Shown one piece after another: positions 3,408 through 63,200 of a stretch of 64,000 nucleotides of DNA. The notes below the pieces were generated by a model, which was given only the letters and a program-made list of their open reading frames with translations, was not told the origin of the DNA and made no database searches. Each line of letters opens with the position of its first letter. The first letter of the stretch is position 1. The DNA is from Buxus sempervirens (Eukaryota > Streptophyta > Magnoliopsida > Buxales > Buxaceae): positions 41,584,901 to 41,648,900 of the forward strand of contig OX387183.1 in assembly GCA_947561395.2 (NCBI GenBank), written 5' to 3'. Position numbers and translations under genes: made by a program.

Positions 3408-6179
3408 CCGTAAAAGATAGTATCAAACTCCACCACAGAAGCCGTATCACCGAACCGTAAAATTAAAGAGAACAACATCATACCACATACCAATCCATAC
3501 CAAAGTATTCCATTCCATGTGAAATCCATGATTCAATCATAACGAATCCAATTATAGGCATTTTCAGAATAACATATGCAATTCTTCCAATTATATTCAA
3601 AATAAAACTCAAGTATCATAAATCCGATAAATCTGAGTTTATGAAATTCCAGTAGCTAATATTCCTATTTAAAGCTCAAAATAAAGTAAATACAATCTTA
3701 CTTAGAGTTTTCTTTGTTAATCCCTTTTATTAGAATCAAATTTCCTACCTTAGCACCTAAGCTAGTTTCTATTTGAATTTTCTGTATTTTATTTTTCTAG
3801 CACGTTCTACAGACCTAGAATGAAGTTTAAAAGATGTTTGTAAGCTATAAATTTCAGTAGTATTATTTCTAGCAATATCCATACCCTTTGACTCTTTTAT
3901 AAACAATCCTTTCATTATAACCTTTTATTTATTGCTTAATCTTTCCCAATTAATTTTATAATTTTTATAGCTTAATTAGGTCCTTATAAAGATGCTAACA
4001 TGCTTAACTAATCATAAGAATTATTGGGTATTTATTCGAATTACAAAATCCCCAAAATCTACAAATTTTACTTAGAGCGCCTACCTCTACAGGACTGGGC
4101 GATCCTAGGCGCTCGTGCAAAATAAAACAGAATTTTCCAGATTTTTAATGTTCGAATTTTTAGGCCTTTGCTATATGTTTTCTTGGTCTAAATTAATCTA
4201 CAAACCTTCTAAAACATACCTATAGCCTTCTAGAGTAATTTTTATAAATTAAATACCCTCCTACCTTTATTTACATAATCCAACTAAACTTTCTTCATTA
4301 ATTTGATAAATCCACCAAGAATACAAATCATGAAAATATAAGCAACTTGATTCCATGTAAATACAGTTCCGTCTAATCCATTCTAACCATATGAAATCAC
4401 AGAAATCAAAATCATGCAGTTCCTCACGTTTTCCAAGGGTTACTACTTGCCTTATACGCTAAATCCTTCTTCCATTGCACCTTCTAATTCTGGACCAGAA
4501 TTTTGCTCCCAACCGCACCAAGCTAGACTCTTCCACTTCAAATCTCCACCGTACACAATGTAGTTCTATTAGTGAAAAACAAAACCTCCAAATTTGAAGG
4601 CGATCCACCGTACGGATTTTCCCCGATCGCGTTTTGATGGTGGCTGGTCAGACACCTCCATTAGAAACCTCCTTCCTTTCTCTCCCTCTTTTCTCTCCAT
4701 AAGAAACCCACGAAAATTCCCTCTTGTCTAACCTTAGTCTCCTATTTATACTAGGCTTTAGAAATCTTAAACCAACCCTAATTGGCTAATTTAATTTGGG
4801 CTAACCCAACCATGGTCTAGTTAATGTCTAATCCTTCTAATTTAATTCCTAATTTTTCTCCACCTTCTATTTTCCACTTAAACAATACTAATTAAGTTTC
4901 TTATTATCTAAACTCATGAAAATAACCTATTTTCGTGCAAAATTTTTAATTAAACATTTTTATCACTTAAAACCTTATTTTCTCCAAATTAAGACGTGAA
5001 ATCTCCTAATTACCCTTTTCCCTATTTTAGGCTTTTATTAATTTCTTTTAATTTCTAACTTGTCAAAATAATTTGTTTTCTTCTATTTTCTAATTCTAAT
5101 TATTATTTGATGATCTATTTACTAATTACCTTTTTTTGAAAATTACCAAAATACCCTTTTATTCTTTTAGGCTACTCTCATTAAAATTTTTTCTTTATTT
5201 TTGTAAGACCCTGATTTTTGGTAAGTTTTATTGTTTGTTTATTTATTTATTCTTATATATATACCTGTGTTTATCAGGTGATTTTGTGGTTTGAGGGCTT
5301 AGCCCATACTCGTATGTACAGGCGTTATATAGCCATTTTTCTGAAAAATAGTATTATTATCATTATTATTATTAAAGTATAGTTGTGTGCTTATTAACGT
5401 AAGTGGATGCGGAACATGTAGTGTTTCCGGTGGGCGAGCATGCATAGGATCAAGGGGTTAAAAGGGTTGATCGAGCGGCGTATGTATCTCGCAAGGTAAA
5501 TGTACAAATAGGGAAAGTAGGGTTTTGGGTTTAAAGGAAATACGCGTATGTACTTACGGAAATATTGTTGTTAGTCTCATACTCAGGAGCTCAGGAGAAT
5601 CGGCTGGAGAGTGTGGCGACTAGGGTTCTGTGCTCGTGAAGAACAAGTATCGCAAGGGCTAAGAGGAGGGTTTCGGAGTTGGAGTTGAGTGGGTTCTTTC
5701 TCTCTGCTCGAGACGAATTGTTGGGTAGGTTCTGTATTCGCGTGCGTGGCCGGAGTGGTGATCGGCCGAGGTTTTGATATATTCGGGAATAAGCGCATTC
5801 AGCATTCAGGTGAGTAGCACTGATTTACAACTGGGTTTTGTGTTTGATGTTTTCGTGGGCTTATTCTTATGCATGGTTTGTATTTTAAGTGATGTATGAG
5901 TTTTCTGGTTTTCTTCTGGTTTTCTGGAATGACCTGAAACAGAGTCAGAGACCGAAATTTATCTTGAAATTAAATGTAGTTAGATTAAATCCAAATATGT
6001 TTGGGAAGTCTTCTGGGAGTACTAGGAGGGTATTGGAGTAATAACAGACCGAAACAAACCAGCCAGAGATATAGATCTCGAATTTACAGAGAACTGGAAA
6101 TCGCAGGGGGTATCCGCGAACCCGGCACCCATTGCCGCTCACCTCTTAGCTAGATGCCCGTTAAAATTCGACTTACCGT

Positions 6180-6290
6180 CGAGCTCGCGCGAACCTGGCG
6201 CTCAGCTCGCGTGCACCCGAAAACCGGCCGCTCGGCTCGCGCGAACCTGGCGCTCAGCTCGCGCCTATCTCGCGCTCACCTAGCATCGAG
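6180..6290. repeat. GC-rich 53-bp tandem repeat in LTR C2
   Basis: GCTCGCGCGAACCTGGCGCT recurs with a period of about 53 bp (near 6183 and 6236), followed by partial CTCGCGC units. It is a strong local GC peak in an AT-rich region. Confidence 0.7.
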
Positions 6291-6979
6291 TGAGCAGAAG
6301 CAACCTTTTACCCAAATTTTCTTACTGCCGACCGACGTCCACCTGGCGCCCACCTCAGGAAGTGAGCGCCTACCCTATTTTACTTACTGAAATGGAAATC
6401 TGAATTAGCCAAGAGTAATTGGGTGTCTTAGGGGTTAAACCACTTCACTATTCACTTGTTTGGGAACTTTGGGATCTACTTTGCCTATGAAATTATTAGA
6501 GGAAAATTTAGTTAACTTCTTAAAAGCTTCCAAGTTGAATTTAGGTTATCTATGAGTGTTGTGCCGGATGCCAAACCACTAAGAGTTACCAGTTACGTTC
6601 ACTCTGTTTTATACACTGTTTTGATTGAGGAGTTATTCTATTCTGGTTTCACGTGTTTGGAAACTGTAAATGTGTTGTGAGGATTTCCTTGGTATGAATG
6701 AATTGAGTTTTGTTTCCGAATGGCATGTGTTACGAAAATGAGAAAATGCTGAAAGTACTTGAGATACTGCTTGGTCCAGAGGGACAGGTGATGAACTGTG
6801 ATGGGTTTTACATGATGTGGAATGAATGCTTTTTCTTTGATATTGGTATTGAGATTATACGATGTTTTACTGTTTTGGTCTAGCTTGTCCTGGATCCAGA
6901 TGTTTAAGCTTAGTAATGTGATGTTATTGTTGGTTGTTGGAATTGCATGGCCTTGTGTGTTGCCACGACCGGTGTAGAG

Positions 6980-7102
6980 CAGCCAGAAACCCTGAGTAGG
7001 CCTGGTTGTCAATGCAAAAACCCGGGGAGTAGGCCTGCATTGGATGACGAAACCCTGAGTAGGCCGTCATTTCAGAGTATCCGAAACCCTGAGTAGGCCG
7101 GA
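6980..7102. repeat. Array of four hairpins with conserved loop and changing stems
   Basis: Four units of about 35 bp share the loop AAACCCTGAGTAGGCC (one variant has CCGGGGAG). Their flanking arms differ but pair within each unit: CAGCCAG/CTGGTTG (6980, 7002), CAATGCA/TGCATTG (7010, 7036), ATGAC/GTCAT (7044, 7066) and TCCG/CGGA (7080, 7099). The matching changes are visible directly. Function is unknown. Confidence 0.85.
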
Positions 7103-8847
7103 ACTGTGTACATGGAGGTGTGGAGTGTCTACTTGGCATGTTTAATTTATCAACTAAACGATAGTCATGACATTGACCAATCGATGTGTTGCCGTACTTA
7201 ACTGAGATGTGATTTGTTTGATCAGAACAAGTTTTGATTTGAACTTGGGAATTGATGTTGGTTGTTTAACCGTATTAAGTGTTTGTCGATGCATAGTTTT
7301 AAATTGTGGTCAACTATTTCTGCATGTATGTGCTACTCGCTGAGATATTCGTATCTCACTCCGTTGTTTGTTTTGTTTGTTTTTCAGATACTCGTGGTGA
7401 GGCGATTACTGGGGTAGATCCTGCTGAGGCTTATAGGGAGGAGGATTACTATTACCTTCCTTAGACTAGTAGGTTATCTGTTCTGAATTTGAGAACTTTG
7501 AATTAATTGAGATGTATTAAAGTTTAATTGGGGTTGAACCATACGATTCTAGTTCAGTTTAAATGTTACAATTTTGCATAAATGGAAATGTGCACTCTGT
7601 CAGGTTATAGCTATATGATTATCCAGCGATCATAAATTGATTAACGATCCTTGCCTAACCTTCGTGAGACGTGTTATATCTTTATTGAACAACACGGATC
7701 CGGGGCGTTACAATTTTCAACTTAGGACTTATTTGAATTAATTATCCTCTAAATCTTCACTTTTTATTTTAACTAGGACTTAACTCATATTTTCTTTTAT
7801 TTATTAGGTGAAAAATCGGGGTTTTACAAAGGAGGTTTGAGACCATCAAAGTTTCCTCTTTAAAAAGCACCATAGAAGAGGTCATTTGAGCCGAGATCAA
7901 GTCATCTGAACCACCGTGGTTACATTCAAAGATCTGTAACAGATCGTGCAGGTGTTTAAGAGAAGAGCAAGCTGAACCCATGGGCTTTTTTACCCTTTCT
8001 GGATGTTCGGGTCTGAACCGCACCGGAATTGCGGTCTAACCACGACCATAGGCCATCTACGGTCAAGATTGTTTTAATCATTAAAAAATCATTTTATGGA
8101 CCCAAATAGACCATTTGACCCGAATGGCTTTAAAATGAACCAGGTGGGCTTTTGGGCCAACCCGAGCCCAATTTTTTTTACCTGGGTCCACTTAGACTCA
8201 CCAAGGCATTTGTGGGCCCTCCAATGGGGCCCATATCCAGACTGACCCACACCAGGATTTGTTTCATAAATGGGTCTCGGGTCACTTGATTAAAAACCCA
8301 TGGGCCAAGTCCAAGCCCAATGGGCCTTAAAAACTTAAACCCACTCAATTAAATTTCATGTTTCATTAACTTCAAAATTAAATGACCAAATCCAATAAGG
8401 GTTTCCCAATAACCCTAATGGGCCATGGGCTTGACTTAAAGCCCAACTTAGCAACCAATGGGCCTTCCAACGGGGCCCATACCCGACCCACTTCCCATAA
8501 ATAACTAAAAAAGATATAAAAAAAAGTAAAAGGACTTACACCTGAAAAAAGTCCCAACAGACTTAATCTGATATATGCTAGAATAGGACAATGGTGAATA
8601 TAGTTGACTCAAAATTAGGATGACCCAAGGGACCCGTTGAATCGGCGGGGCGGACCGGGGTGTCTTCGGACTTACACGGACCGTAACCGAGCACTTAACC
8701 AGAATCTCAAGCTGCAGACCAAAATAGACCCAGTTAGGTTACCTTGTATTTGCCTGCACCTCTCAGGCAGTGGCGACTCCGGTATTCAATCTTTTAGGAG
8801 GCACGCACACGACACGTGCGCCTCGCCGTGCGATTTCACCGCGCACA

Positions 8848-11631
8848 GTTATGATACATGGGATATCGTTCTTCCTTTAAAATAGGGTTTTAATTGAGGA
8901 TGAGCATGCGTTAGAGAGAGACTTTGTTTTGGAGTTTGTGTCTATTGTAGCTGGAGAAAACCAACGAAGGAGAGAGAACCACATTCAAAAGCTTTCAAAT
9001 CTGTGCAGTTTGCTTTGATCTTCTTGAGTTGCTGAAAGGATCAAAACAAGAAAGATTTGTAAGGTAAGTAGTAACTGTTGGAAACAGTGATTCATATTCT
9101 GGGTCCAAGGGGGGAGGGGCCCTGTGGGCAAAGCATATATAGGGCACATTGCCGAACCGCTTAAATTTGCGTGTTCTTCTTCTTCTCTTTTTTTTCCTTA
9201 CTATTCACGTTGCGTGATTCACAACAGTAATGCTTCTCGATCTTTAAAATGTGCATGGTTTCAGGTTTGTCATTAAATAGCAATGTTATTGGACGATTCT
9301 ATTTGGTCTATGATGTTATTGATTTGGTTTGTGATTTTGTATTATCTTTTGAAGAATCTGAGATCAATTTTATACATCTGGGGTATTGCACAAAATCAAT
9401 GTAAGTTAAGCCCAACCAACAACAACACATTAATTTATATTTATACATATGAAAAACCATTAGAATCAATCAAAAGTTCTTGGGAAAAATAGTTTATATG
9501 CTAGATTTCAAGACTTATATTTGTGTTGCATATGATCAGAGATGATAAGGTTTAGTTTCATGTGATTAGAGAGGACCAGTAGAGAGAGAGTTTTGCTGTA
9601 AATTTTGGAAATGAGAGAATCAAACAAGAGAGATGGGATTTCAGGTTAAGGAAATTTATAGAAGAAGAGAGAGATGGGTTTGTTCGAATGAATGAGAATA
9701 TATTAATGAGCATATTACAGATGAAAGGGGGCTGATGATTGTGTGACATAGTAAAAAAAGTTGCAGAAAATGTGAGAACGAAAGAGAGAAAAGAGAGAGA
9801 AAGAATAGGAGAGAGAATAAAATAAAGAGGAGTGCATGAGGGAGACTAGGTTGGAAGATGGGTTTGGTTTGCTTTTTCACAGAAGAGAGAGAAAGAGAGG
9901 GCTCGTATGATGAGGGGTTCAAAATTGTAAATGTAAAAAACTTAATATGCTACTTTGTAATTTCAGGACTTAAGTAAATGATTGTTTTTAAAAAGTTTCA
10001 CTTAAACCCATATATTTAGTTTAATATCAAAATTCTCCTATTGACTACCTATTATTTAATTTAAAGGTATTAGTGACATTATTGGGATTATGGTCTTCAT
10101 CCTAATTAAAATAATTTGTATGATGATTACAAATTATATGTACATTAAATAATTCATGAGTTGTTATTATATTAATATGCATGTGTTTATACATATACTA
10201 AATGAGTAAATAAATGATAAATTATTATTAAGGGACGTAATAAAATAAATTGTTACCTTAACCAGGGAATTACATAAATAAAATTAATGGTAATAGAAAA
10301 ATAGATGATAATTTGGGATGGGTTCCTAATCACTCTTAATTTCTAAATAATTATTGTTAATTGATATTATAATGAAAAATCATTTTTTTAAAAGGCTTCC
10401 AATGTACTTCTAAAAATGTATAAGGGAATTTGAGATGATTTGGACTTATGGAATAATTCTCAAAGTTTTGCAAAAGTGTATGGACTTGGTTTTATTCAGC
10501 TTTATGGTGATCTTGCCACCTACATGTATCTTGTAGGTTATAATTTCTCTCCCATGTATCTTGAGATGAACTCTTGATTTCCTCCATGTATATTGGAGTG
10601 GTGTTTATACCATAGTTGGCAATATTGGAATGGAATGGGTATTTCTATTGTGGGTTTTAGATTAGTGTCTAGTGGGTATAGCTATGTATGGATTCATGCT
10701 TCAGCTAGGTAATGAAATGAGCCGGTCTTTGTTAGGTTAATCTCGTGGTCCATGTATGTGTACCACCATGTATCTTGGTGAGGCCTTCCTGTATCTAGTT
10801 AAGCTGGAGCAATCTGTACCACAATGTATCTCGGTAAGATCTTTCTTTGAGTTTATTGTTGCAGTTTGACTGGGTTGTACTTTCCAACCATTCTTGTATC
10901 TGGTTTGGGTGCTCCGCAATAAGACAATGTCCGAAACCCTGAGTAGGCCGGCTTCGCACATAAGTCATGAGGTGGCAAATTTGAACGGGTAGTTGGCCTC
11001 TCAAAGAAGTCTAATTTCATGAGTCATGTGATGTTACACCGTGATTTGTTTGACTATGATTAGTTGTATAAATGTTATTGGTTTTACATCGAAAAATTGT
11101 AGAGTTCTATTTCTTTATGATCATGAGATTATTGGAGAGTTATTTTTATCTGTGTAACCTCATGAAAGGTTTTTGATAAATTATTTGGACTGTGTTTTAT
11201 TACATGCATGTTACTACTTACTGCGATTTCGATCTCATAAAATGTTCCTGAAGGGGTAGAACATATTGGGGTAAAGGATTTTGTTGAAGACGACACAAAC
11301 GACCATTACTACTTAATGTAGGGTGTCTTTCATATTTAGAAGATGAATTATTTGATTGAATTATTGGATTATGGAGCTTTATTTCATTGGTAGTAGAATT
11401 TATAGATAGTCGACCTTGTTTCCAGACTTAATAATTATGGATTTGATTTAGTTATTGGATGTTTTAATTCTGCATTTTAATTGGGGTATCAATAAATAAT
11501 TTTAAATTTTGCGTACTCTGATGTTATTAAACTTTCAGTCTGGATTTAGTTGTTTGCTTGGGGTTCATAGGGTTCGCGTTTTGGGCTTGAATTTATTTTA
11601 TTAAGAATAAATTTGGGTCCAGGGCATGACA
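8848..11631 (+). mobile_element. 5' LTR portion of a Ty3/gypsy element
   Basis: The right end GGGCATGACA at 11631 is followed 8 bp later by a primer-binding site and then gag, so it is a 5' LTR. It contains the loop motif AAACCCTGAGTAGGCC seen in LTR C2 and a CTTACTGCGATTTCGATCTCA segment resembling the ATCTCACTCC region of the C family. The left end is not resolved; LTR A3 abuts or interrupts it at 8847. A GA-rich stretch at 9580-9910 and AT-rich sequence at 9950-10400 hold no gene. Confidence 0.6.
10518..10952. repeat. Array of hairpins with ATGTATCTT loops and changing stems
   Basis: The core ATGTATCTT or close variants recurs with different pairing arms: ACCTAC/GTAGGT (10518, 10533), TCTC/GAGA (10548, 10563), CTCC/GGAG (10582, 10595), CACC/GGTG (10764, 10777), TACC/GGTA near 10817-10834, and a CCAACCA/TGGTTTGG unit near 10887-10909. 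The last member, at about 10930-10952, carries the AAACCCTGAGTAGGC loop with TCCG on the left and CGG on the right. Confidence 0.8.
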
Positions 11632-11639
11632 CCTAAAAG

Positions 11640-11651
11640 TGGTATCAAAGC
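11640..11651 (+). other. Primer-binding site, initiator-Met tRNA type
   Basis: TGGTATCAAAGC lies just after the LTR end, the usual place and sequence for a plant gypsy or copia primer site complementary to the 3' end of initiator-Met tRNA. Confidence 0.8.
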
Positions 11652-11977
11652 ATAATTAGGATCCCCAACCCTAGGTAGTTGAAAACCTTAGGTTGGTTAT
11701 AGGATATGTGTTTCATTAGATAGAACCTTTAATTTTCATAGGTGAGTGATTCCTAACTTGGATTCATCTCTTGTTTTGCAGTTGAAATGGCTAGATGACG
11801 TAATTTGGAAGGTATCTATGCTGAGAGTCCAGCTACTGAGGCTCCGAATATGGAGGAACAGATGAGGCAAGTCTGGAGAGCCCTGGGATCAATGTCTACT
11901 CTTTTGAGCAGAGAGATTGAGGAGAGACAAAGGCAGAATTAGGATATTGGGCCACAAAAGAGATTCCACATGCAAGG

Positions 11978-14672
11978 TGTAGACACTTGATTTTTGCACC
12001 CCTGAAATGAAGAAAATTAAAAGTCAAATTAAAAGTCAAACCTAAGGGGGTCAAAATTTTGACTTTTTTATCGGGTACAAATTGACCACCAAACTTTATA
12101 CCATTGGAAAGAGGACTTCGATACGATTCTAACGCAACTGAGTTTTCTTAAAATCGGAGTCCAGATAAAGAAGTTATGGGCTGGTCAAGTCTGGAAATAG
12201 CAGAAATCGGTTTTCTGCAAAACTCCAAATTAGCTGCTCAATTGGACATCAGCAGAAAGAGCGCATCGACACGACTCCAACGCAATTGAGTTTGCTGGAA
12301 TCGGAGTCCCGGATAAGGAGATATGAGCAAAACTGGCTCCGGGACGCGACTTTGCACTTCTGCTAAAAAGCCCGAATTTGCTGCCAAACTCTAGCTCAGT
12401 AGATAGAAGATTTTAATCTGATTCCAACGCCACTAAGTTTGCTGAAATCGGATATCAAATGAAAAAGTTATGAGCAGTCAAAAATCTCGAAAAATCTACC
12501 CATGTGGCAAAATTGAAGAAAGGACAAAAAAAATAAATAAAGATCTAAGAATAAAATAATAATATTTTGTAAATATCTAACAATTAAACTAAATAAAATA
12601 GAAAATAGAAAAGACATGTGTCTTCTAACAAACCAATCTTAAAGAATAAAATAATATTAAAACTTAGAGAATCTTAAGATTAAAATAAATAAAAAATAAA
12701 GAAAAATACTAACCACATTCGTAGGATAAGATGATGTGGAGAGATAAGAATAAAAAATATTTACGTTTTAGTTATGTCAAACAAGAAATTAAAATTCAGT
12801 TTCAGGTCATTTTTTCAACTATAAAAAGGGGGCCACCCCCCCCCCCCCCCCCATATTTCAATCCATCAAGAAATCCCCTTTCCTTCTCCCCCTCTTGCTC
12901 TCTCCTACAGCTCCTCCCCTCTTCTTCTTGGTCTTTTCCTACGTCCAAGCTGTGCCCAATTTACATCTCCCTCAATACCCAAACCCCAAAATACCCTTAG
13001 GCTACCCCCAAACCATGCCCAAACTCTGCTTTTCTGCCTTGTAAGCGTAGATAACCCATCGAACCCCTGCCACAACCAATTTAGAAAACTGGCAGAAACG
13101 CGGAAGCGCTGCCAAAATTCTAGGAGAACCCCCTTTCAACCCCATTTCGGAGAATGAACGGGAGTGCGGAAGCGCTGCCAGAATCTCTCTGAAAAATCAC
13201 AAGACCATGCCCCTTCTCCTCACCTTCAATCTCCTTCCAATCTAAGAATAAAAGAACCCTTTTTCAAACCCAATTCGGAAAATCAAAGGAGGAGCGGAAG
13301 CGCTGCTCAAATTACTCGGGAAATCCAAAACACAACAGAAGTGAAAGGTAACACTAAAGGAATGCTTTTGGGTAAATTTCAATAAATTCAGTTCTTTGTT
13401 AAGTTGATTTCTCTTCTTATTTTTTTTTACTACTTCTCACCTGTTTCCTCTCTGTGGCATGATGATGAGCTCCCCATGACAAGGGGAAGAACTCATTCAA
13501 AAGGTGGAAAAAGAGAGCCATTAGCAAAAATGGGTAAAAAGAAACCCATTCCGTGACATTTCTAAAGAAGGCAATTATCCCTTTGAACTGTCTCATGTAT
13601 CCCATACTCTCCCCTTCCCTTTCCTTCTTGAGATTGACAACAAGTGATTAAAACAAAATCTCAAATCTCCAAAGAATGCAAGAGAGGAGAGAAGAAGGCC
13701 TTTTAGGCCAAATAAAGCAAATGGAGCACCTTGAAGATGCTGGAACCCCGACGGATGTCACCAGACCTCCTAAAGGACCTGTCGAAGTGATCCCAGCCGG
13801 AATCGAAGCAAAACGGCGAAAACAAGCAAAAACCGCATACTCAGAGCAGTCGGCACATGACCGCAATTGATCTGCAGTCCGGTCTAAACCGCACTGCATC
13901 TGCAGTCCAGACCAAACCGTAGAGCAAGTGCGGTCACATCCTTCAAAATGACTAAAAAGTTAACTTTTTTTTACCCGGTTGGATCCAAACCCGACCTGAA
14001 CCAGCCTGAACTAGCCTCTTAAGTAATTTGGACTTCTTTGAGTCCCTTTTAGACCGTGGGCTTAGACGAGCCCACCAGGACACCCCGGGCCCACATGTGT
14101 GGCCCACATTTTGACTGGCCTATACCAGGCATGTTTTCAATAAACAGGCCCAGGCCCCTTGACCTTTGGCTAATGGGCCAACTCCAAGCCCATTAAGCCC
14201 ATGGCGTCTGTAAATAATTTAAATAAATAAACCAAAAGGGGTTACCCAATAACCCTACTGGGCCCCAAGCCCAACCTTGGCAACCCACGGGTCTTCCAAC
14301 GGGACCCGTACCCAACCCATCTCACATAAATAAAAAGATAAAATAAAAAGGGGTCCACACCACCAGAGGGTCCCGCCAGACCAAACAAAGTGGCATGCTG
14401 GCCTAGGAAGGGTGAAAATTGACTCAAAACCAGGGAGACCCGAGGGACCCGTCAAACCAACGGGGCGGGCCGGGGTGTCTTCGGACTTCCCCGGACGTAA
14501 CCGAGGACTTAGCTAGAACTCTGAAAAGCCGCAGACCAGACTTAGACCAGGATAAGGCAAACACCGTGTTTGCCTGCACTTCTCAGGCAGTGGCGACTCC
14601 GAATGTCCCGAGGCACGTACGAACCTCCACGTGCGCCCCTTGTGCGATCTAGGCCAGATTTAGGTGCGCACA
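11978..14672 (+). mobile_element. Solo LTR A1, Tat-like gypsy family
   Basis: Starts TGTAGACAC, ends GCGCACA, 2695 bp, with perfect 5-bp duplication CAAGG at 11973-11977 and 14673-14677. It sits inside the gypsy gag remnant. Its first 500 bp match the inverted copy A2 (shared GGTTTTCTGCAAAACTCC-like and TTATGGGCTGGTCAA-like words). A TATA box and C-tract lie near the middle, and a conserved stem-loop with TGGCGACTCC lies 72 bp from the end. Family placement rests on LTR style and is tentative; the boundaries are firm. Confidence 0.92.
12820..12827 (+). promoter_or_regulatory. TATA box of LTR A1
   Basis: TATAAAAA precedes a run of 17 C (12836-12852) and a C/T-rich leader, the expected layout of an LTR promoter at the U3/R border. 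Confidence 0.6.
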
Positions 14673-22720: not shown

Positions 22721-22761
22721 CTTCATCCTAAAGCTCTAGACTCGTTCTTCATTGTGATAGC

Positions 22762-23754
22762 ATGGCTAATAATCCAGATTCTTCTACCCAGTCTTCTTCT
22801 TCACAAGTGAGTAATGTTTTTTCCCCTTATTTTCTTCACTCATCTGATCATCCTAGTGCTGTTCTAGTCTCCTCTCTTCTTACTGGAGACAATTATTCTA
22901 CATGGCAAAGAGCTATGAGGATGGCTCTCAATGCAAAGAATAAACTTGGGTTCGTTAATGGCACTCTCAAGAAACCCAATAATGATGCTGAAGCTGTTCA
23001 CTTGTGGGAGAGATGCAGTGACATGGTTCTCTCTTGGCTCCTCAACAGTATCGACAAATCTCTCACTGGTAGTCTTATATATTGCAATACACCCCATGAA
23101 GTATGGGTTGATCTTGAGGCTTGGTTTTCTCAAAGCAACAATCCAAGGATACTTCGTCTCAAGAGAGACATAGCCACACTCCGACAAGATACTCTTTCTT
23201 TTGCACAGTACTACAACAATATTAAACAATATTGGGAAGAGCTTAGTGCATTACAACCTCTACCAAATTGCATCTGTGGGGCATCCAAGGACTCAGCTAG
23301 CCTGCAAGACACTGAACGAGTTTTCCAATTTCTTATGGGATTGAATGAATCTTATGCCCAAATCAGAAGTCAAATCTTAACTATGGAGCCTTTACCTGTT
23401 GTGAATCGAGTATACTCCATTCTCCACCAAGAAGAAACACAACGTCTTCTTCATCTCCCATTACCCACGCCAGACATTGTTGCTATGCAAGTTAATCGAT
23501 CACAGAACCTTCATGTGCGTGAAGTTCAACCCAAAGGAAAAAATATTCATACTTGTGAACATTGTGGCAAAACCGGGCACTCTAAAGCTTCTTGCTATCG
23601 TCTCATTGGATTTCCTGCTCATTGGAATCAAAATCATAACACTTCACGAAATGATACAAGTCGTCAATTTGTGGCCCACCAGGTTTCTACTAGCCCACCT
23701 ACAACTTCAACCGAACCTGGGATCCCTGGTTTAACTAATGAGCAATATAACTAA
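22762..23754 (+). CDS. gag: Copia Gag protein
   Basis: An open frame of 330 codons. The N-terminal part carries LLTGDNYSTWQRAMRMAL (about residues 40-57), followed by the helical capsid-like UBN2/Retrotran_gag region with VWVDLEAWFSQSN and LKRDIATLRQ. A CCHC zinc knuckle, CEHCGKTGHSKASC, lies near residues 264-277. The product would form the particle and bind element RNA. This frame looks whole, though the element as a whole is not. Confidence 0.9.
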   Translation: MANNPDSSTQSSSSQVSNVFSPYFLHSSDHPSAVLVSSLLTGDNYSTWQRAMRMALNAKNKLGFVNGTLKKPNNDAEAVHLWERCSDMVLSWLLNSIDKSLTGSLIYCNTPHEVWVDLEAWFSQSNNPRILRLKRDIATLRQDTLSFAQYYNNIKQYWEELSALQPLPNCICGASKDSASLQDTERVFQFLMGLNESYAQIRSQILTMEPLPVVNRVYSILHQEETQRLLHLPLPTPDIVAMQVNRSQNLHVREVQPKGKNIHTCEHCGKTGHSKASCYRLIGFPAHWNQNHNTSRNDTSRQFVAHQVSTSPPTTSTEPGIPGLTNEQYN

Positions 23755-23757
23755 TTA

Positions 23758-26700
23758 ATGGATCTACTCAAGCCTGCTTCTATCAACTTTGCTGGTAATT
23801 CTTCAGTACCCATCTTTAATTCGTCTTCTTGTACTTTATCTGATTGGATTATAGATAGTGGAGCATCTGACCACATGTCTAAGCATTCATCTTCTCCTAT
23901 CAAACCAACCGTTACACATCAGTTTAGTCCTGTTTGTTTACCAACAGGTGATGTTGTTCCTGTTTCTCATGTTGGTACCTTTCATTTACCTCCCTCAATT
24001 ACTCTTCATAATGTTCTCTTTGTTCCTGATTTTGAATTTAATCTCTTGTCCATCAGTAAAATTACCAAATCTCTTAATTGTGTTGCTATTTTTTTCTCTA
24101 CCTTTTGTGTTTTCCAGGACCTAACCACGAGGATGCTGATTGGAATGGGTGAAGAGCGTAATGGACTCTATTACTACAAGCATGTTTCTCCTGTAGCCTT
24201 TCATGTCAACAGATTTATTCAGTCCAATATCTGGCACCAGTGACTTGGTCATCCTTCTCATTCATGCTTACCCAGTTTTTTATCTCCTTCTATTAAACCA
24301 CTTCATTGTGATGTGTGTGCTAAGGGAAAGCACACCAGACTTCCTTTTTCTTTGAACTCAAATAAAAGTACTTTTTGTCTTTGATCGCATTTATTGTGAT
24401 ATTTGGGGTGGTTATCATACTGCTTGTACCATGGGTGCTCATTACTTCTTGACTATTGTAGATGACTTCTCTCGGGTTACTTGGGTGTATTTAATGCGCC
24501 TTAAATCTAAAACTTTACATTGTCTTAGAAATTTCTTTGCCATGGTTCAAACCCAATTTCAATGCAACATTCGTCATATCCGTACTGATAATGGTCAAGA
24601 ATTTCTTTCCCATGTTACCCAACAATTTTTTCATGAACAAGGTGTCATCCATGAGCAAACTTGCGTAGAGACACCCCAACAAAATGGTGTTGCTGAACGT
24701 AAACATCGACATCTTCTCAATGTTGCTCGATGCTTACGTTTTCAAGCCAATCTTCCTTTTCATTTTTGGGGTGAATGTATTCTCATTGCAACCTATTTAA
24801 TCAATCATACTCCTTCACCTAGTCTTGATAACCTTACTCCCTATGAACATCTTTTTAACAAAGCACCTCACTATGACCACTTACGTGTTTTTGGATGTTT
24901 ATGTTATGCTCAAACATTACAATCTCATAGGGATAAATTTCAAGCTAGGGTCATTCCCTGTATATTTATTGGATATCCTCTCAGTCAAAAGGCATACCGA
25001 CTGTTTAATCTGGAAACAAAAAATATTCACTTCTCGTGATGTAACCTTTGTTGAAAGTGTTTTCCCTTATCACACCATTATGTCTCCATCCTCTACTTCC
25101 ACCGTCATTCCTCAACCCCTTTTTGAGGTACCCATTGAACCCCTTCATCCTCCTAATAATGAACCTTCCCCTTCTCATTCTCCACCTTCTATTAATGTTC
25201 TACCACCTAACCTTATACCACTTCCTAATCCAATTCCCTTAACTAGACCATGTCGCCACATCACCCGCCCCTCGTATCTTCAAGACTATGTTTGTCCCAC
25301 TTTACCTTCCGAGTCCAATACGTCTTCATCCACTTCACAGCATTCATCAGGTACGGCTCATCCACTTGCTAATTTCATTTCTTATCATAAATTCTCTTCT
25401 CAACATTTTTCTTTTATTTCTTCTTTGGCTTCACATTATGATCCTGTTAACTATTCTCAATCTATTCAGCATTCTCATTGGCGTGATGCTATAACTTTTG
25501 AAATACATGCTTTGTAAGACAACAATACTTGGAGTCTTCACCCTCTTCCTCCTGGTAAGAAGCCCATTGGCTGTAAATGGTTTTTCAAAACTAAACTTCG
25601 TGCAGATGGATCCATTGAACGGTATAAAGCTCGTCTAGTGGCCAAGGGTTATACCCAAATTGAAGGTCTTGACTATCATGAAACTTTTGCCCCGGTAGCA
25701 AAACTCGTCACCGTTCGTTGTGTTCTTGCTATTGCAGCAGCTCGTCATTGGCATCTTCATCAGTTAGATGTGCATAATGCCTTTCTTCATGGTGAACTCG
25801 ATGAAGAAGTCTACATGACCCTTCCACCTGGCTATTGTGGTAAGGGGGAGACTCGGGTTTGTCATCTCCACAAGTCTCTTTATGGGTTAAAACAAGCTTC
25901 TCGCAACTGGTATTCTAAACTTTATGTTGTTCTCCTCTCCGCGGGCTTCACTCAATCACAGGCTGATCACTCGCTATTTACACGATCCAATGATCAAACT
26001 TTTACTGCTATTCTTGTCTATGTGGATGATATTTTGTTGACAGGAAACGATCTTCATACTCTTACTACTGTGAAAGCCTTCTTAGCTAATCGTTTCAAGA
26101 TCAAGGACCTTGGTTCTCTTAAATACTTCCTTGGGCTAGAGGTTGCTTGTTCACCTTCTGGTATTTTTCTCAACCAACGGAAGTATACTCTAGATATTCT
26201 TTCTGATGCGGGCACTTTGGGTTCTCATCCTTCTTTTTTTCCCATGGAGCAGAATTTGAAGTTAACACCTCATGATGGCGAACTCCTCTTAGATCCCAGT
26301 ATCTATCGGCGTCTTGTTGGTCGCCTCATTTACTTAACTATCACATGACCTGATATTGTTTTCTCTGTTAATGTTCTCAGTCAGTTCATGCATCAACCCC
26401 GTCAACCGCACTATCAAGCAGCTCTTCGAGTTCTGCGCTATCTCAAGTCCTCACTTGGTCATGGTATATTCCTTTCTTCCACATGCAATTTTCAGGTCTC
26501 CGCATATTCAGACTCTGATTGGGCGAGTTGTCCCACTACTCGCCACTCCACTACTGGTTTCTTTATCAAGCTTTGTGACAGTCCTATATCTTGGCGCACT
26601 AAGAAGCAATCCATTGTTTCTCGTTCCTCCGCTGAAGTAGAATATCGTGTAATGGCCTCTAACACATGTGAATTAGTCTGGTTAAAACTCTTACTTCATG

Positions 26701-39231: not shown

Positions 39232-42200
39232 GTACGCGTTTCTTTGATTCTAAAGTTCTTTATGTTCGTTATTTATCAGTTGCAAGTTTGATCATTTAGG
39301 TCTTGCCTATTGGCATAAAAAACCCTAAGTCTCTTTAAATATTATTGAATTAGGCCACATCGGTCACGAAGATGTTCTAATGTGGCTTTAATTCTTATGA
39401 ACTCATTAAGTTGAGCCCTCTAATTCTAGTAGCTGCAATATACAGTAGCTGGAGATCGATTGATCATGCAAAATGAGGTCTTAGGAAAAGTCCAAGAGGG
39501 TGTGTAGAAGTGTTTAAAAGGGCTAGAAGTAATCTGAAAAGGACTCGAATTGGCATTGCATTTTCTTAATTCATTTTTCTAATTGAATATATGGTTTTTG
39601 ATAATTTGGAAATTTTAACAGGATTTTTGTTGCCGATGAGTCATTTTGTTAATATTGATGTACATGGAAAATATACTGTAGAATTAAATGTAACAGGGAG
39701 GGTTACATATTGATAAGGAAAAATAAAGGAAGAAAGAAAAAACAAAGACAGGATTAGTCTCCTAATTGAAAAAACTTCAGGCGCTGTATTTGTATGACAA
39801 TTTTTAATTTTACGGAATTGCAGGGCTAGCTGGTGCTACAGCTGACGTCCATTGTTATGATGTTTTGTCAAATAAATGGTCTAGGTAAGGTTGGGACTAA
39901 GAGTTACTATTTTATTACGCACAAGTGTATAACTTTGCTGATAATTTTATTTTTCAAATGCTATTTGTTTGTCTCAATTATAGAATGGTTGTAATCGTTT
40001 TTCTTTTATACGAGCTATTTTGTAGGCTTATCCCTCTTGGGGAACAACCCTCACCAAGGGCAGCACATGTGGCAACTGCTGTGGGTACTATGGTGGTTAT
40101 CCAGGTTGGCAAAATTGAAATATTGAAATCTCTCTACCTTTGTTATTGAAAGCACACGCATGCACACACACACACATATTGATAATATATTTAATAAATA
40201 TATATCTATTAAGGAACATCACTTGGAGTGGTAGTAAAAGCGTCTAGTTGTGAAGGTGAACATGTGAGTCCGAGTCTGAATGCAGTCACTTGACATAAAA
40301 ATGCTGAAGGTTGGGGGGGGGGGGGGGGGGGGGGGGGGTTGTGGGTCTATATTTGCAAACACACACACGCAACGCATGCATACATACATACATATATAAA
40401 GTTTAGGTTAGCACATGAATCTTGTTCTTTCATCTTAATTTATGAATGACCATATCTTAAGTTAGAATATAGGTATTCATATCCATTTTAACAGACTCCA
40501 AATTTTGTTTTTTTGATCTTCCCCCTTGATTTCTTGGATCTTTTAATGCATATCTTTCACACCTTTTGACAATTGCCTTTTTAGGCCTTTGTTTTACATG
40601 CCGAAACTATTTTAGCCTATTTTCCTTTATCTTGCCACTTAATTGAGCAACACTCAATAATTCTCCAATATGTTCATTCCGTATCTTTCCTAGTCTTTTC
40701 ACACATGCATCTCAGTAACTTTTATCCTGTGCATATGTTGCTTAGTTGCCCAAAATTCTGATCTATACATCAAAATAGGCATAATAACTGTATAATAAAA
40801 TTTTCTTTCAGTTTAAGTAGGATACATCAATTTATAAAACTCGGACGCACCTCCCTGCTTAAGCCATCCATCCTTAATTATATGTGTAACATTCTTATCA
40901 ATATCTTCCTTATGAATAATTGATTCAAGGTAATGAAATTGATTATTTTTAGGAATCTCTTGATTCTCAATTCTCAATTTTGCTTTTCCTCTACCATTAT
41001 ATATATATATATATATTAAAGTTACACTCCAAATATTCAGTGTTAGTTCGCCTTATTTTAAAATCCTTTATTTCTAACTAAGGAATCCCTTTAAAACTCC
41101 AATTTTGTGCTTCTCCTTCCATCTACAAATAATATGCACTAAGTCACCTTTTCGTGGATACATCTAGTTATTTTATCCATTTAAAGCCAAAAGATAAGAG
41201 CTCACAGCAGACCTTTGGTTTAGTGCTCTTACACACGTGTTAAACAATTGCGATATACTTTGTTGGTACTTATTTTTGTTCAAGACCCACTAAATTAACT
41301 CCATTGCAACTCTATCAGATGTTTTTCTAGGTCAGTAAAAATCATATGAAGTCCTTTCTTCTCTTTCTAAGCTTCTCCACTAATTGTCTAGTTAATAAGA
41401 TTACCTCAATAGTAGACCTTCCTAGCATAAAGCCAAACTGGATTTCTAACCCTATGGTTATTTTTCTTAACCTTTTTTTTTTATCACTTTCTCCAATAAT
41501 TTCACCATATGGCTTATAAGCCTGATTCCATGATAATTGGTGCAATTACGGATATCTCATTTCTTTATATATATGTGCACCACCATGCTTTTCTTCCAAG
41601 CATTTGGGAATTTTCTGGTCCTCAAAATTCCATCAAATAATTTGTCAGACATATTACACTAATCTCACATATACACCTACATTCTTTAATTAGATTAACA
41701 TCTTGTGCTAATGCCTTTGCAGCTTCCATTTTAGCTGAAAGCCTTTTCACTTTAGGGGCCCTAATCCTATGAATAGAACAATTTTTTTTTTCGATCAGTA
41801 CTGAAAATGCTTTATTAAAACTTAAAAGGAAGGAAAAATGTATGTTGACTTCCCCCAGGAAAAGAGGAGAATAGATATCAAAACACTAAATTAAGTGCTA
41901 GACAACGTTACATTATTAGGAATCCTTGTAAATAGTTTCCCTAAATGAGCCGATCTACTAAAGAATTTGTTGATCAGGGAATAAGATGAAATGAGGTGTT
42001 TCAACCCACAGTAAGAGAGCATGCCAACCCTAAAATATAAACCGTCCTCTTAGAGTGTGAAATTGAACTAGAAATCTGCAGAACTCAATTGCAATGTTTG
42101 TCACTTCCAGTTTTTTGTCCTCCTCTATCCCAGTCAATAACTCAACAGCTTCAGAAATATGCATTAGTCTCCCTCCCCAGTAGGACCTGAGAAAGGCATG

Positions 42201-60200: not shown

Positions 60201-63200
60201 CCAAATGAGTGAGTTTTCAAGAATTAATTATTTAAATCATAACTTACACATGTAAACCATAATGTACAGTTATTAACCATAAGAATTTATTTATTTATTA
60301 ATTTTAAGATTTATAATAAGAATATAAAGATGATATTAAAAAATCGAATGAATCCATGATTGATACACCAATTATGGATTGATGTTACATAAGATATATT
60401 TTCATAGTAACTTAAAAATGTGCAGAAAATCTCCAATCATGAGAAAAGTTAAAAAAAGAAAAAATGTTCCATAGCTTTACTTGAAGGAAACAATCAATTT
60501 GTGGAACTATTCTGTCACTCTAAATTGATGCTATATATTAATTATATCACCTATTTATAGAACTTAATCAAAATAATGTTTTTGAATTTTTTGAAATTGT
60601 TCAGAAGATGAGTGTTACCAAGATGAATATGGTAAGATGGATGTATGGCAAAGCTTGAGAAGACAAAGTAAGAAATGAAAATATTTGAAAGGATTAGGCA
60701 TTGCATGTATTAGGGATAAAATTGAGGTGATTTGGACATATAAAGCAAAGACCTAGAGATGCATCTGTAAGAAGGTGTGAGAGTACGCATTTTGAATGGC
60801 CTAAGAGATCAAGAATAAAAATCTAAAATGACAGGGATGGAGTTAAGAAAACAAGATTTACATAAACTTAAATTAATTGAAGATATGATTTTTGATAGAA
60901 CAGGATGAAAAGACAAGATTCGTGTTGCGGACCCACTTTGGTGGAAAGTGGTTTATGTTGATGATTATTGATGATGATTTTCATATCAGAAAATAAGAAA
61001 TCAATTTGTTGTCTCAAAATCATCATCAATTCATGAAACTTATAACAAATTATTAATACCTAACTTATGAAGATTAAGCATTGAAATTTATTTTTTAGTC
61101 AAATCTTTAAGCGTTAAAGAATTTTGAAACATAAAATACTTTTCTTATCTTTTAGCAATTGACTGGATAAATTTTTTTTTTTCATATCAGAAAATAAGAA
61201 ATCAATTTGTTGTCTCAAAATCATCATCAATTCATGAAACTTATAACAAATTATTATTACCCAGCTTATGAAGATTAAGCATTGAAATTTATTTTTTAGT
61301 CAAATCTTTAAGCGTTAAAGAATTTTGAAACATAAAATACTTTTCTTATCTTTTAGCAATTGACTGGATAAAATTTTTTTTTTCATATCAGAAAATAAGA
61401 AATCAATTTGTTGTCTCAAAATTTTTATCAATTCATGAAACTAATAACAAATTATTAATACCTAACTTATGAAGATTAAGCATTGAAATTTATTTTTTAG
61501 TCAAATCTTTAAGCGTTAAAGAATTTTGAAACATAAAATACTTTTATTATCTTTTAGCAATTGACTGGATAAAAAAAATTTCTTAGAATTAATTTTCCAT
61601 TATTAGTTTGATTTTTTATTTGTAGATCTTGAAAATTATTAATATTTTCCATGTTAATCAGATGTTTGAAAGTATTTTTCTTAGTGCTGATCAAAATTAT
61701 ACTTTTTTTTGCATGTTTGATAAATTTTGCTTTCTTGTTACAGTATCACCATCCTTTTTCCTGTCTTGTATTTGCTTGTAGCCATTATCTGGTGCATATG
61801 GTCTTGCCAAACACAGGGACGGTCGTTGGGAGTGGGCCATTGCTCCTGGTGTCTCACCGTCTCCTAGATATCAGCATGCAGCAGTGGGTTTTAGTTTCAC
61901 TTTATCGGTTTCTTCCTTTTCATTTTCTTAAAGATATTCTTGTTTCTTATTTTTTTTTAAGTCATCAATCAATTACATTCTTTATTTTTCCCAGGTTTTT
62001 GTTAATGCACGGCTCCATGTATCTGGAGGGGCACTTGGTGGTGGTCGCATGGTGGAAGACTCATCAAGTGTGGCAGGTATTTGCTTTTTTTCTTTGGAGA
62101 TTTGGATTTATGGGTACTTTCATATCTTTGTGCAGCATGGGATTTTTTGATCCTATATGTTAAACGCAATGCAAGGATTGCAAAGTAGAAAAGTGGTTGT
62201 ATTATTACTTGAAAATTATGCAATTTTTCTCTCTCTACTGCCATCTCCTGTTTGTGTAATGTGTTTGTATGCCATTTAGGATTTCTAGATATATCCTTCA
62301 ATCTTTTATGCTTTAAAATTTAGTCAGATGTTCATTTTTGTGCTTGGAGATGAAAGAATTAAAATTATGCTTCAAAATATTGTATGAAAATATATATTCA
62401 GACCTTAAAACATGGAAAACAAATTGATATTGGAAACATTATAAAAATTTATGAAAACATTGTAAACTCATTGAAAATATAAAAAAACTGAAGTAAGGCT
62501 CATTTAGATGTAAATATAGGCTCAAAATATGATGAATTAACATGAAGTTCATATTACAGACCTGTTCACATAATATAAATTAACGTGGAAACAAATTGGT
62601 TCCCATGAAGAAGAGGGAGAGAAGGTTATGGAACAATTTATGAGCTTTGTCAGTTCGCACAAAAAGAAGAAGATTCAATGGAAATATAGGAATATATTAT
62701 ATAGAGGACAAAGATAAGGAATAAGTTGGAAGAATTGTTCCTTTTCTAGTAATCGAATATGTAAACCCATGAAGAAGAATAAGATTTGAGTAATAAACAA
62801 CAGTAACAGTCACAAAATTCATTATTGATGTTAGTTAGGGTCAGGAAAAAATAGAAAATAAGGACTTACCAGACTTTCTTAGAGGCACTTAAGGCAATAA
62901 TACATGGTGGATTTTTGAGTGAGCAAGAGTCGTGGCAGATGAAGAGGTCCCTATGTAGGAACGAGTTGCATAACCCTATTCCTTTTTGAAAGAATGAGAA
63001 AAACCATTGGTGTTTGTTCAAATTTTGGATGTTGAACTTATGTCACACAATTTACCCAATCTGGTTTTATTTATTCAACAAGTTGAAAGATATTACATAA
63101 TTATTTATAGTGATGCCTGCGTATTTGTATCTTAAGAGGAACAAAAGAGAGAAGAAGGGGTTGGGGGGGGGGTGGGCTGAGGTTGTGGAAAGAAATCTGT

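What the first reader, a model, noticed from the sequence alone, without database searches (positions are those of the whole stretch)
6980..7102. Hairpin array with conserved loop and covarying stems in a gypsy LTR
Four consecutive units keep the loop AAACCCTGAGTAGGCC, but each has different arms that still pair: CAGCCAG/CTGGTTG, CAATGCA/TGCATTG, ATGAC/GTCAT, TCCG/CGGA. Simple tandem duplication would copy the arms unchanged, so paired changes suggest that the fold is kept while the stem sequence is free. The loop could be a protein or RNA contact site. I know of no named LTR feature of this kind.
Basis: seen in the sequence. Interest (0 to 1): 0.72.

Follow-up and report, generated by a model that had tools for sequence, protein, structure and literature searches.

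The report
Shared-loop RNA hairpin array in retrotransposon
Many copies of a jumping gene, probably in a plant, carry a row of small hairpins that show the same loop on differently spelled but still matching stems, which suggests a repeated RNA handle used in the element's life cycle, although accidental copying between the two arms is not excluded.

Summary
The array is real. Window 5202-7712 is a solo LTR (TSD ATTTT) of a Ty3/gypsy chromovirus. Its four abutting hairpins (6980-7105) share the loop AAACCCTGAGTAGGC; unit 2 has a longer variant, so three loops are exact, not four. Own-arm pairing is the best of all 24 arm permutations, and 1 of 200,000 random draws within the LTR does as well. 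The 16-base loop word occurs 10,880 times in this 676-Mb genome. In 61 distinct arrays 97.4% of stem cells pair. The best covarying pair, by genome-wide pattern counts, is A-T 1824, C-G 1578, A.G mismatch 6. A second LTR in the window has a weaker array built the same way on another loop (ATGTATCTT). The array lies downstream of the only TATA-like box and between splice-like sites, the 3' one recurring in other LTRs. Best reading: a sense-strand RNA platform on unspliced element RNA that shows one loop several times, perhaps for Gag binding or packaging; transcription, splicing and function are inferred. Main rival: template switching re-matches the arms without selection. Wobble data favour sense RNA only modestly (T.G 167 vs C.A 112 at one pair). 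The loop's partner is unknown. I score it a new variant of a known kind.

The parts
5202..7712 (+). Solo LTR (2,511 bp, TGTAAGACCC...GGGCGTTACA) of a Ty3/gypsy chromovirus; sense = + strand
   Evidence: ATTTT repeated on both sides; 40 rows scored (the window itself included), 38 of them at 92% identity or more; paired copies show TSDs, PBS after the 5' LTR and a purine-rich tract before the 3' LTR
5197..5201 (.). Left target-site duplication ATTTT
7713..7717 (.). Right target-site duplication ATTTT
5254..5262 (+). TATA-like box, the only place in the LTR that matched TATA[AT]A[AT] (LTR position 53); inferred promoter
   Evidence: a TATA-like stretch found at the same place in 29 of 29 copies examined; function inferred
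5808..5815 (+). Splice-donor-like AG|GTGAGT
   Evidence: GTGAGT in 29 of 29 copies, though the base before GT is T in 7 of them; function inferred
6980..7008 (+). Unit 1: CAGCCAG / loop AAACCCTGAGTAGGC (6987-7001) / CTGGTTG
   Evidence: 7 pairs with one G.U
7010..7042 (+). Unit 2: CAATGCA / variant loop AAAACCCGGGGAGTAGGCC (7017-7035) / TGCATTG
   Evidence: in most aligned copies base 7017 is G, giving an 8th pair
7044..7070 (+). Unit 3: ATGACG / loop AAACCCTGAGTAGGC (7050-7064) / CGTCAT
7076..7105 (+). Unit 4: AGT-A(bulge)-TCCG / loop AAACCCTGAGTAGGC (7084-7098) / CGGAACT
   Evidence: copies without the bulged A, such as one in L049, pair 7 bases straight
7341..7358 (+). TGAGATA-TTCG-TATCTCA hairpin just upstream of the acceptor-like site
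   Evidence: similar in L099, L101, L085 and another LTR in the flank of L031
7380..7387 (+). Splice-acceptor-like TTTTTCAG| after a pyrimidine-rich tract
   Evidence: CAG in 28 of 29 copies (L032 has CAA); function inferred
7516..7521 (+). ATTAAA, possible polyadenylation signal
   Evidence: function inferred
10518..10538 (+). Second LTR: ACCTAC-ATGTATCTT-GTAGGT, first of an array with a different shared loop
   Evidence: permutation test; de novo scan
10582..10598 (+). Second LTR: CTCC-ATGTATATT-GGAG
10764..10780 (+). Second LTR: CACC-ATGTATCTT-GGTG
10931..10951 (+). Single AAACCCTGAGTAGGC unit (CCG/CGG) inside the second LTR
   Evidence: only 3 contiguous pairs
11622..11651 (+). End of the second LTR (..GGGCATGACA, 11631) and PBS-like TGGTATCAAAGC (11640-11651): same sense as the first

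Best explanation
A multi-copy RNA structural element of a chromovirus LTR. Shown: the units lie in one orientation, each shows the same loop (or a variant) on its own complementary stem, the stems differ but keep pairing, and a second LTR in the window that shares no long repeat with the first has an array built the same way. Inferred: transcription starts near the TATA-like box at LTR position 53, so the array is in the RNA; it lies in an optional intron (donor 5808, acceptor 7387), so only unspliced full-length RNA carries it. Each hairpin presents the loop to one trans-acting factor; several weak sites in a row give avidity and mark the unspliced RNA, most likely for Gag binding, dimerisation or packaging.
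For: Within-unit pairing beats permuted arms and random loops. 61 distinct arrays: 97.4% of cells paired vs 95.6% shuffled, 6 pairs and 27 cells changed on both sides vs 2.7 and 11.5, 0 of 500 shuffles reaching any of these three; slid structures pair 14.7-43.8%. Pattern counts at one U2 pair: A-T 1824, C-G 1578, T.G 167, C.A 112, A.G 6, where free assortment of these five classes expects about 869 A.G. T.G over C.A has binomial p 0.0012; the two sites have nearly the same local context because the stem is a palindrome. Another loop (ATGTATCTT) has the same build in the second LTR: 36 of 5040 permutations (L081), 188 of 5040 (window), 1872 of 362,880 (L084) by contiguous pairs; its first hairpin varies C-G 5, T.G 4, T-A 2 at one pair. 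The two LTRs share no direct repeat of 60 bases or more. Loop orientation is mixed in 0 of 74 arrays, 253 units. The array is 3' of the only TATA-like box and between donor- and acceptor-like sites; an acceptor-like site recurs in other LTRs. Three LTR pairs are 98.4-99.2% identical, so the family moved rather recently.
Against: No RNA data: promoter, splicing and transcription of the array are read from motifs only. Whole-array folding is no better than shuffles. Strand tests on the copies are weak: G.U vs A.C single changes 50:29 by copies, p 0.024; 49:32 on a tree, p 0.075; 27:18 in the second family, p 0.23; C>T also exceeds G>A in the loops, 35:17. One of the two tree routes to the C-G form of U2 runs through C.A, not G.U. 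Related copies make shuffle controls generous. In the second family several units have only 0-1 contiguous pairs, and looser scores are less clear (L084: 48,240 and 16,738 of 362,880 permutations); its single AAACCCTGAGTAGGC unit has 3 pairs. The retroviral packaging signals in the passages I saw are present in both spliced and unspliced RNA, so the 'unspliced only' analogy is not supported by that text. A sunflower survey found no Tekay-clade element among the expressed ones (passage). No partner protein or RNA is identified, and nothing here separates Gag binding from other RNA roles.
Confidence: 0.4

Rival explanations
1. Mutational by-product: units arose by tandem duplication and diverged, and template switching between the two arms during DNA synthesis or reverse transcription repeatedly copied one arm into the other. 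Pairing is then maintained by the mutation process, with no function of the fold.
For: The process is described: template switching can create perfect hairpins and multibase compensatory changes (PMC8794818; abstract, start of introduction and outline seen). Here arm changes in U1 come in blocks (CCAG/CTGG, CACCG/CGGTG in L030, CATTG/CGATG in a second array of L049, ATCCG/CGGGT in L039), and on the tree U2 goes from A-T to C-G once in a double step and once by way of C.A. Changes on tips far outnumber those on inner branches, so the copies look mostly neutral.
Against: It does not explain why loops stay alike while arms differ, nor 0 of 74 arrays with an inverted loop, since such switching can also invert the spacer (start of the abstract of PMC8604942 in the listing). 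In the ten AAACCCTGAGTAGGC unit classes the helices hold G.U pairs (U1, U2, U3) and no A.C pair, and T.G exceeds C.A 167:112.
Confidence: 0.27
2. DNA-level cis-regulatory palindromes: repeated protein-binding or cruciform sites acting as enhancer or silencing target, as proposed for palindrome clusters in Sirevirus LTRs.
For: Arrays of repeats, sometimes palindromic, in control regions of transposable elements are described (PMC10760457, section 21 read; the original Sirevirus paper is not held).
Against: A DNA site would be expected to conserve the arms; here the arms vary and a non-palindromic loop is kept. The DNA fold of the array is no better than shuffles. The array is about 1.7 kb downstream of the TATA-like box.
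Confidence: 0.13
3. Splicing or small-RNA structure: the hairpins shorten or regulate the LTR intron, or feed host small-RNA production, without any packaging role.
For: The array lies between donor-like 5808 and acceptor-like 7387, and a separate hairpin sits just before the acceptor. Two sunflower retrotransposons give alternatively spliced RNAs (PMC7730604, passages seen). Structured regions concentrate in maize Copia LTRs and carry more small RNAs, but Ty3 elements there lacked such a peak (PMC10760457, passages seen).
Against: Neither role needs a conserved loop sequence. Stems of 4-9 bp are short for Dicer substrates (recalled).
Confidence: 0.15

Closest known systems
Palindrome clusters in the cis-regulatory region of maize Sirevirus (Ty1/copia) LTRs (Bousios et al. 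2016, as cited in PMC10760457)
   Same: Clustered inverted repeats in an LTR
   Different: Other superfamily; cited there as control region and small-RNA source. Here the arms vary and a non-palindromic loop is constant. I could not read the original, so details of those palindromes are not compared.
Retroviral packaging/dimerisation hairpins in the RNA leader (review PMC5035971, passages seen)
   Same: RNA structure near the 5' end of full-length RNA that Gag recognises; likeness of build is recalled, not tested
   Different: Those are a few distinct hairpins (recalled); here one loop is repeated 3-7 times per LTR. In the passages seen the signals occur in spliced and unspliced RNA alike. No binding shown; no homology tested or claimed.
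Template-switch-made RNA hairpins (PMC8794818, abstract and outline seen)
   Same: Multibase compensatory changes in short stems
   Different: That work concerns RNA genes; here a repeated constant loop in one fixed orientation

Membership tests
Ty3/gypsy chromovirus (Tekay-like) | LTRs TG..CA with 5-bp TSD | tested here: met
   Window ATTTT/ATTTT; paired copies CATGG, AAGTT and GGTAA on both sides
Ty3/gypsy chromovirus (Tekay-like) | tRNA-Met-type PBS and polypurine tract | tested here: met
   TGGTATCAGAGC after the 5' LTR (one base different in L034), purine-rich tract before the 3' LTR; naming the tRNA is recalled
Ty3/gypsy chromovirus (Tekay-like) | gag with CCHC, integrase after RT, chromodomain at the C-terminus | tested here: met
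   Retrotrans_gag 1.1e-18, zf-CCHC 4.6e-5, Integrase_H2C2 3.3e-19, rve 3e-7 (31.1 bits, below its cut-off 32.6), SH3_Tf2-1 1.7e-27; Chromo 4.8e-6, 26.8 bits vs cut-off 25.1. RT and its place relative to integrase were not looked at
Tekay clade in particular | RT phylogeny | not tested
   No tree of RT was built; 'Tekay-like' is a recalled resemblance
Retroviral-type packaging signal | Lies in the full-length RNA | tested here: inconclusive
   Downstream of the only TATA-like box, no transcript data
Retroviral-type packaging signal | Bound by Gag and required for encapsidation | not testable with these tools
   -
Known structured RNA family (Rfam 15) | Covariance-model match | tested here: not met
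   No match at E <= 1 in window 5000-12500
Sirevirus-type LTR palindromes | Member of Ty1/copia Sirevirus | tested here: not met
   Ty3-type capsid/gag match, SH3_Tf2-1 and chromodomain

The most novel reading that the evidence does not exclude
Chromovirus LTRs carry a fast-evolving RNA recognition code: arrays of hairpins that show one family-specific loop several times, restricted to unspliced RNA by an LTR intron, with the loop changing in concert as its element-encoded reader changes. In L101 and L099 the place of the AAACCCTGAGTAGGC unit seems to be held by a TGTAACT/TGTAGCT loop on the same CCG/CGG stem (read by eye).
Probability: 0.27. Interest if true: 0.78.

Novelty: new variant of a known kind. 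Interest (0 to 1): 0.54.

Why it matters
How plant Ty3 retrotransposons mark their genomic RNA for packaging is, as far as I recall, little understood. A loop word present more than ten thousand times in one genome, on stems that vary, gives an exact bait for finding a reader and a natural test set for separating selection on RNA folds from template-switch mutation.

Tried and rejected
Rejected: a simple tandem duplication with copied arms; a known RNA family; an exceptionally stable fold. GAAACCCNGAGTAGGCC has 0 exact matches in viral contigs (the tool says records of this genome or near ones may be left out). Within-family G.U/A.C counting was tried three ways and is suggestive only. My first regex extraction of units was too loose and picked up spurious rows; I draw no count from it. 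In one search the list of 21 hairpin classes was partly chosen by eye with G.U allowed, so its total (16 G.U vs 3 A.C) is biased; only its ten AAACCCTGAGTAGGC classes, chosen by loop, are used as evidence. The six hairpins of the second family leave out units that pair badly. Its alignment A2 has 19 rows: the window and 18 of the 20 loci; L079 (the window itself) and L095 were left out. The U2 pattern counts do not include the C.T and T-A classes, and the A-T count allowed only AAACCC where the others allowed AWACCC. Literature: ten searches (one search failed on an argument) listed no paper whose title or abstract start describes a shared-loop, variable-stem array in an LTR; only open-licence PMC papers are held and I opened four, so this is weak. 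No genome of another eukaryote could be searched. The host is named by no call; that it is a plant is recalled from the kinds of element.

Full report
WHAT IS THERE. Window 5202-7712 is a 2,511-bp solo LTR flanked by ATTTT on both sides. The LTR query gave 40 scored rows, the window included, out of 6006 candidates at first look; 38 of 40 are at 92% identity or more. Three pairs of copies lie one internal region apart and show the repeats CATGG, AAGTT and GGTAA on both sides, the primer site TGGTATCAGAGC after the 5' LTR (one base different in L034) and a purine-rich tract before the 3' LTR. Their LTRs are 99.2, 98.4 and 99.2% identical. Gag, CCHC, integrase, SH3_Tf2-1 and chromo domains are found in L015/L017, so this is a Ty3/gypsy chromovirus, and the + strand is sense.

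THE ARRAY. Four hairpins abut between 6980 and 7105. Three carry AAACCCTGAGTAGGC, unit 2 a variant two bases longer. The 16-base word AAACCCTGAGTAGGCC occurs 5,432 + 5,448 times in the genome, its reversed control never. Some copies have a second array about 250 bases downstream, in which one unit has a stem but no loop (GATGAC..GTCATTT; L072, L073, L077; decayed in L003 and L078).

IS IT MORE THAN CHANCE. For U1-U4 the observed order is the best of 24 permutations. For eight unit classes 6 of 40,320 permutations reach the observed sum with G.U, 2 with Watson-Crick only, 2 by energy; for five classes 2, 1 and 1 of 120. With a loop one base larger allowed, random loops in the same LTR reach the sum in 1 of 200,000 draws, composition draws in 0 of 200,000. 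Whole-array folding is not exceptional.

COVARIATION. One search found 72 arrays with both flanking anchors in the held loci and window, 61 of them distinct; with the window row added again the alignment has 62 rows, 61 distinct. With the four-helix structure, 97.4% of 1,723 cells pair. Six pairs and 27 cells change on both sides, against 2.7 and 11.5 in shuffles (0 of 500 as high); the count of further pair types, 26 against 23.5, is reached by 21 of 500. Sliding the partner drops pairing to 14.7-43.8%. Most of the signal is one U2 pair (A-U 32, C-G 18, U-G 3, other 5); U4 adds C-G 47, U-G 10, U-A 2, other 2. Genome-wide pattern counts for that U2 pair are A-T 1824, C-G 1578, T.G 167, C.A 112 and A.G 6; free assortment of these classes would give about 869 A.G. 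The forms are inherited by many copies, so the number of independent events is small: on the tree the C-G form arises once by a double step and once by way of C.A. U1 shows replacement of the inner arm on both sides: CCAG/CTGG, CACCG/CGGTG (L030), CATTG/CGATG (second array of L049), ATCCG/CGGGT (L039).

RNA OR DNA. A G.U pair is tolerated in one strand's RNA only. At the U2 pair T.G outnumbers C.A 167 to 112 (p 0.0012) in nearly symmetric context. Across the alignment it is 50 to 29 by copies (p 0.024), 49 to 32 by tree steps (p 0.075), and 27 to 18 in the second family (summed by hand; p 0.23). In stems A>G is 9 and T>C 0, elsewhere 12 and 5. But C>T also exceeds G>A in loops (35:17), and copies are related. 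I call this suggestive for sense RNA.

A SECOND LTR, ANOTHER LOOP. Upstream of a second LTR end in the window (11631, PBS-like site at 11640) lies an array with loop ATGTATCTT: ACCTAC/GTAGGT, CTCC/GGAG, CACC/GGTG and weaker units, some with 0-1 contiguous pairs. The two LTRs share no direct repeat of 60 bases or more. Own-arm pairing by contiguous pairs: 36 of 5040 permutations (L081), 188 of 5040 (window), 1872 of 362,880 (L084). With two other scores: L081 188 and 12 of 5040, window 274 and 61 of 5040, L084 48,240 and 16,738 of 362,880. So this array is weaker. Its first hairpin varies through G.U: C-G 5, T.G 4, T-A 2 in 11 of 19 rows, the other 8 rows having a different sequence there and being left out. 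The same LTR also holds one AAACCCTGAGTAGGC unit. In two further elements (L099, L101) the corresponding place seems to have TGTAGCT or TGTAACT on the CCG/CGG stem; L101 also has CATC-GTGTAGCTC-GATG where the second LTR has CACC-ATGTATCTT-GGTG. These correspondences were read by eye from flanking similarity.

WHERE IN THE ELEMENT. The only TATA[AT]A[AT] place is at LTR position 53, and a TATA-like stretch is found there in 29 of 29 copies. A donor-like AG|GTGAGT follows at 5808 and an acceptor-like TTTTTCAG| ends at 7387; the array is between them. GTGAGT is kept in 29 of 29 copies (the base before it is T in 7) and CAG in 28 of 29, but those copies are young. More telling, I fetched ten 1-kb stretches upstream of other primer sites (chosen for variety from the 100 listed of 1,064 matches): four (L099, L101, L105, L107) have a pyrimidine tract ending in CAG before a similar continuation, two (L104, L108) have a related stretch with another triplet, four (L100, L102, L103, L106) have none (read by eye). 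A pattern search found it in L085 and in a neighbouring LTR in L031 as well. For the second family, donor-like sites in like context occur in 4 of 20 loci (L079 = the window copy, L080, L085, L086); others do not reach that far or show none. Splicing and promoter use are therefore inferred.

READING. Constant loop, differing stems that pair, fixed orientation (0 of 74 arrays mixed, 253 units) and recurrence in another LTR fit a repeated RNA recognition element best. The likeliest use, by inference, is marking unspliced RNA for the element's own proteins; the review passages I saw do not support the 'unspliced only' part for retroviruses. Template switching as the source of arm matching is the strongest rival; it could also be the mutational supply on which selection acts, so the two are not exclusive.

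KNOWN OR NEW. Ten literature searches (listed in Tried and rejected) showed no such array in titles or abstract starts. Palindrome clusters in Sirevirus LTRs (cited in PMC10760457) are the nearest described thing that I met; retroviral packaging hairpins (PMC5035971, passages) are the nearest in supposed working.

Noticed in passing
window 10515-10915: Second LTR with its own shared-loop hairpin array (ATGTATCTT), weaker than the first.
   Followed up: partly
window 7341-7387; L099 739, L101 (minus) 722, L085 (minus) 2669, L031 (minus) 424: TGAGATA-TTCG-TATCTCA-like hairpin directly before a pyrimidine tract and CAG in several LTRs; looks like an intron 3' end inside the LTR.
   Followed up: partly
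L065 200-700: A different element with four AAACCCTGAGTAGGC-like hairpins (arms about CATTCCG/CGGAATTG) spaced 117-118 bp apart.
   Followed up: no
L072, L073, L077 (second array; decayed in L003, L078): A unit with a stem but no loop (GATGACG..GTCATTT), about 250 bp downstream of the first array.
   Followed up: no
window 60978-61574: Three 201-bp tandem copies, 96% matches.
   Followed up: no
window 40313-40338: Run of 26 G.
   Followed up: no
window 22732-24243: Open frame that by eye resembles a Ty1/copia-type gag with zinc knuckle, followed by a second frame; not searched.
   Followed up: no
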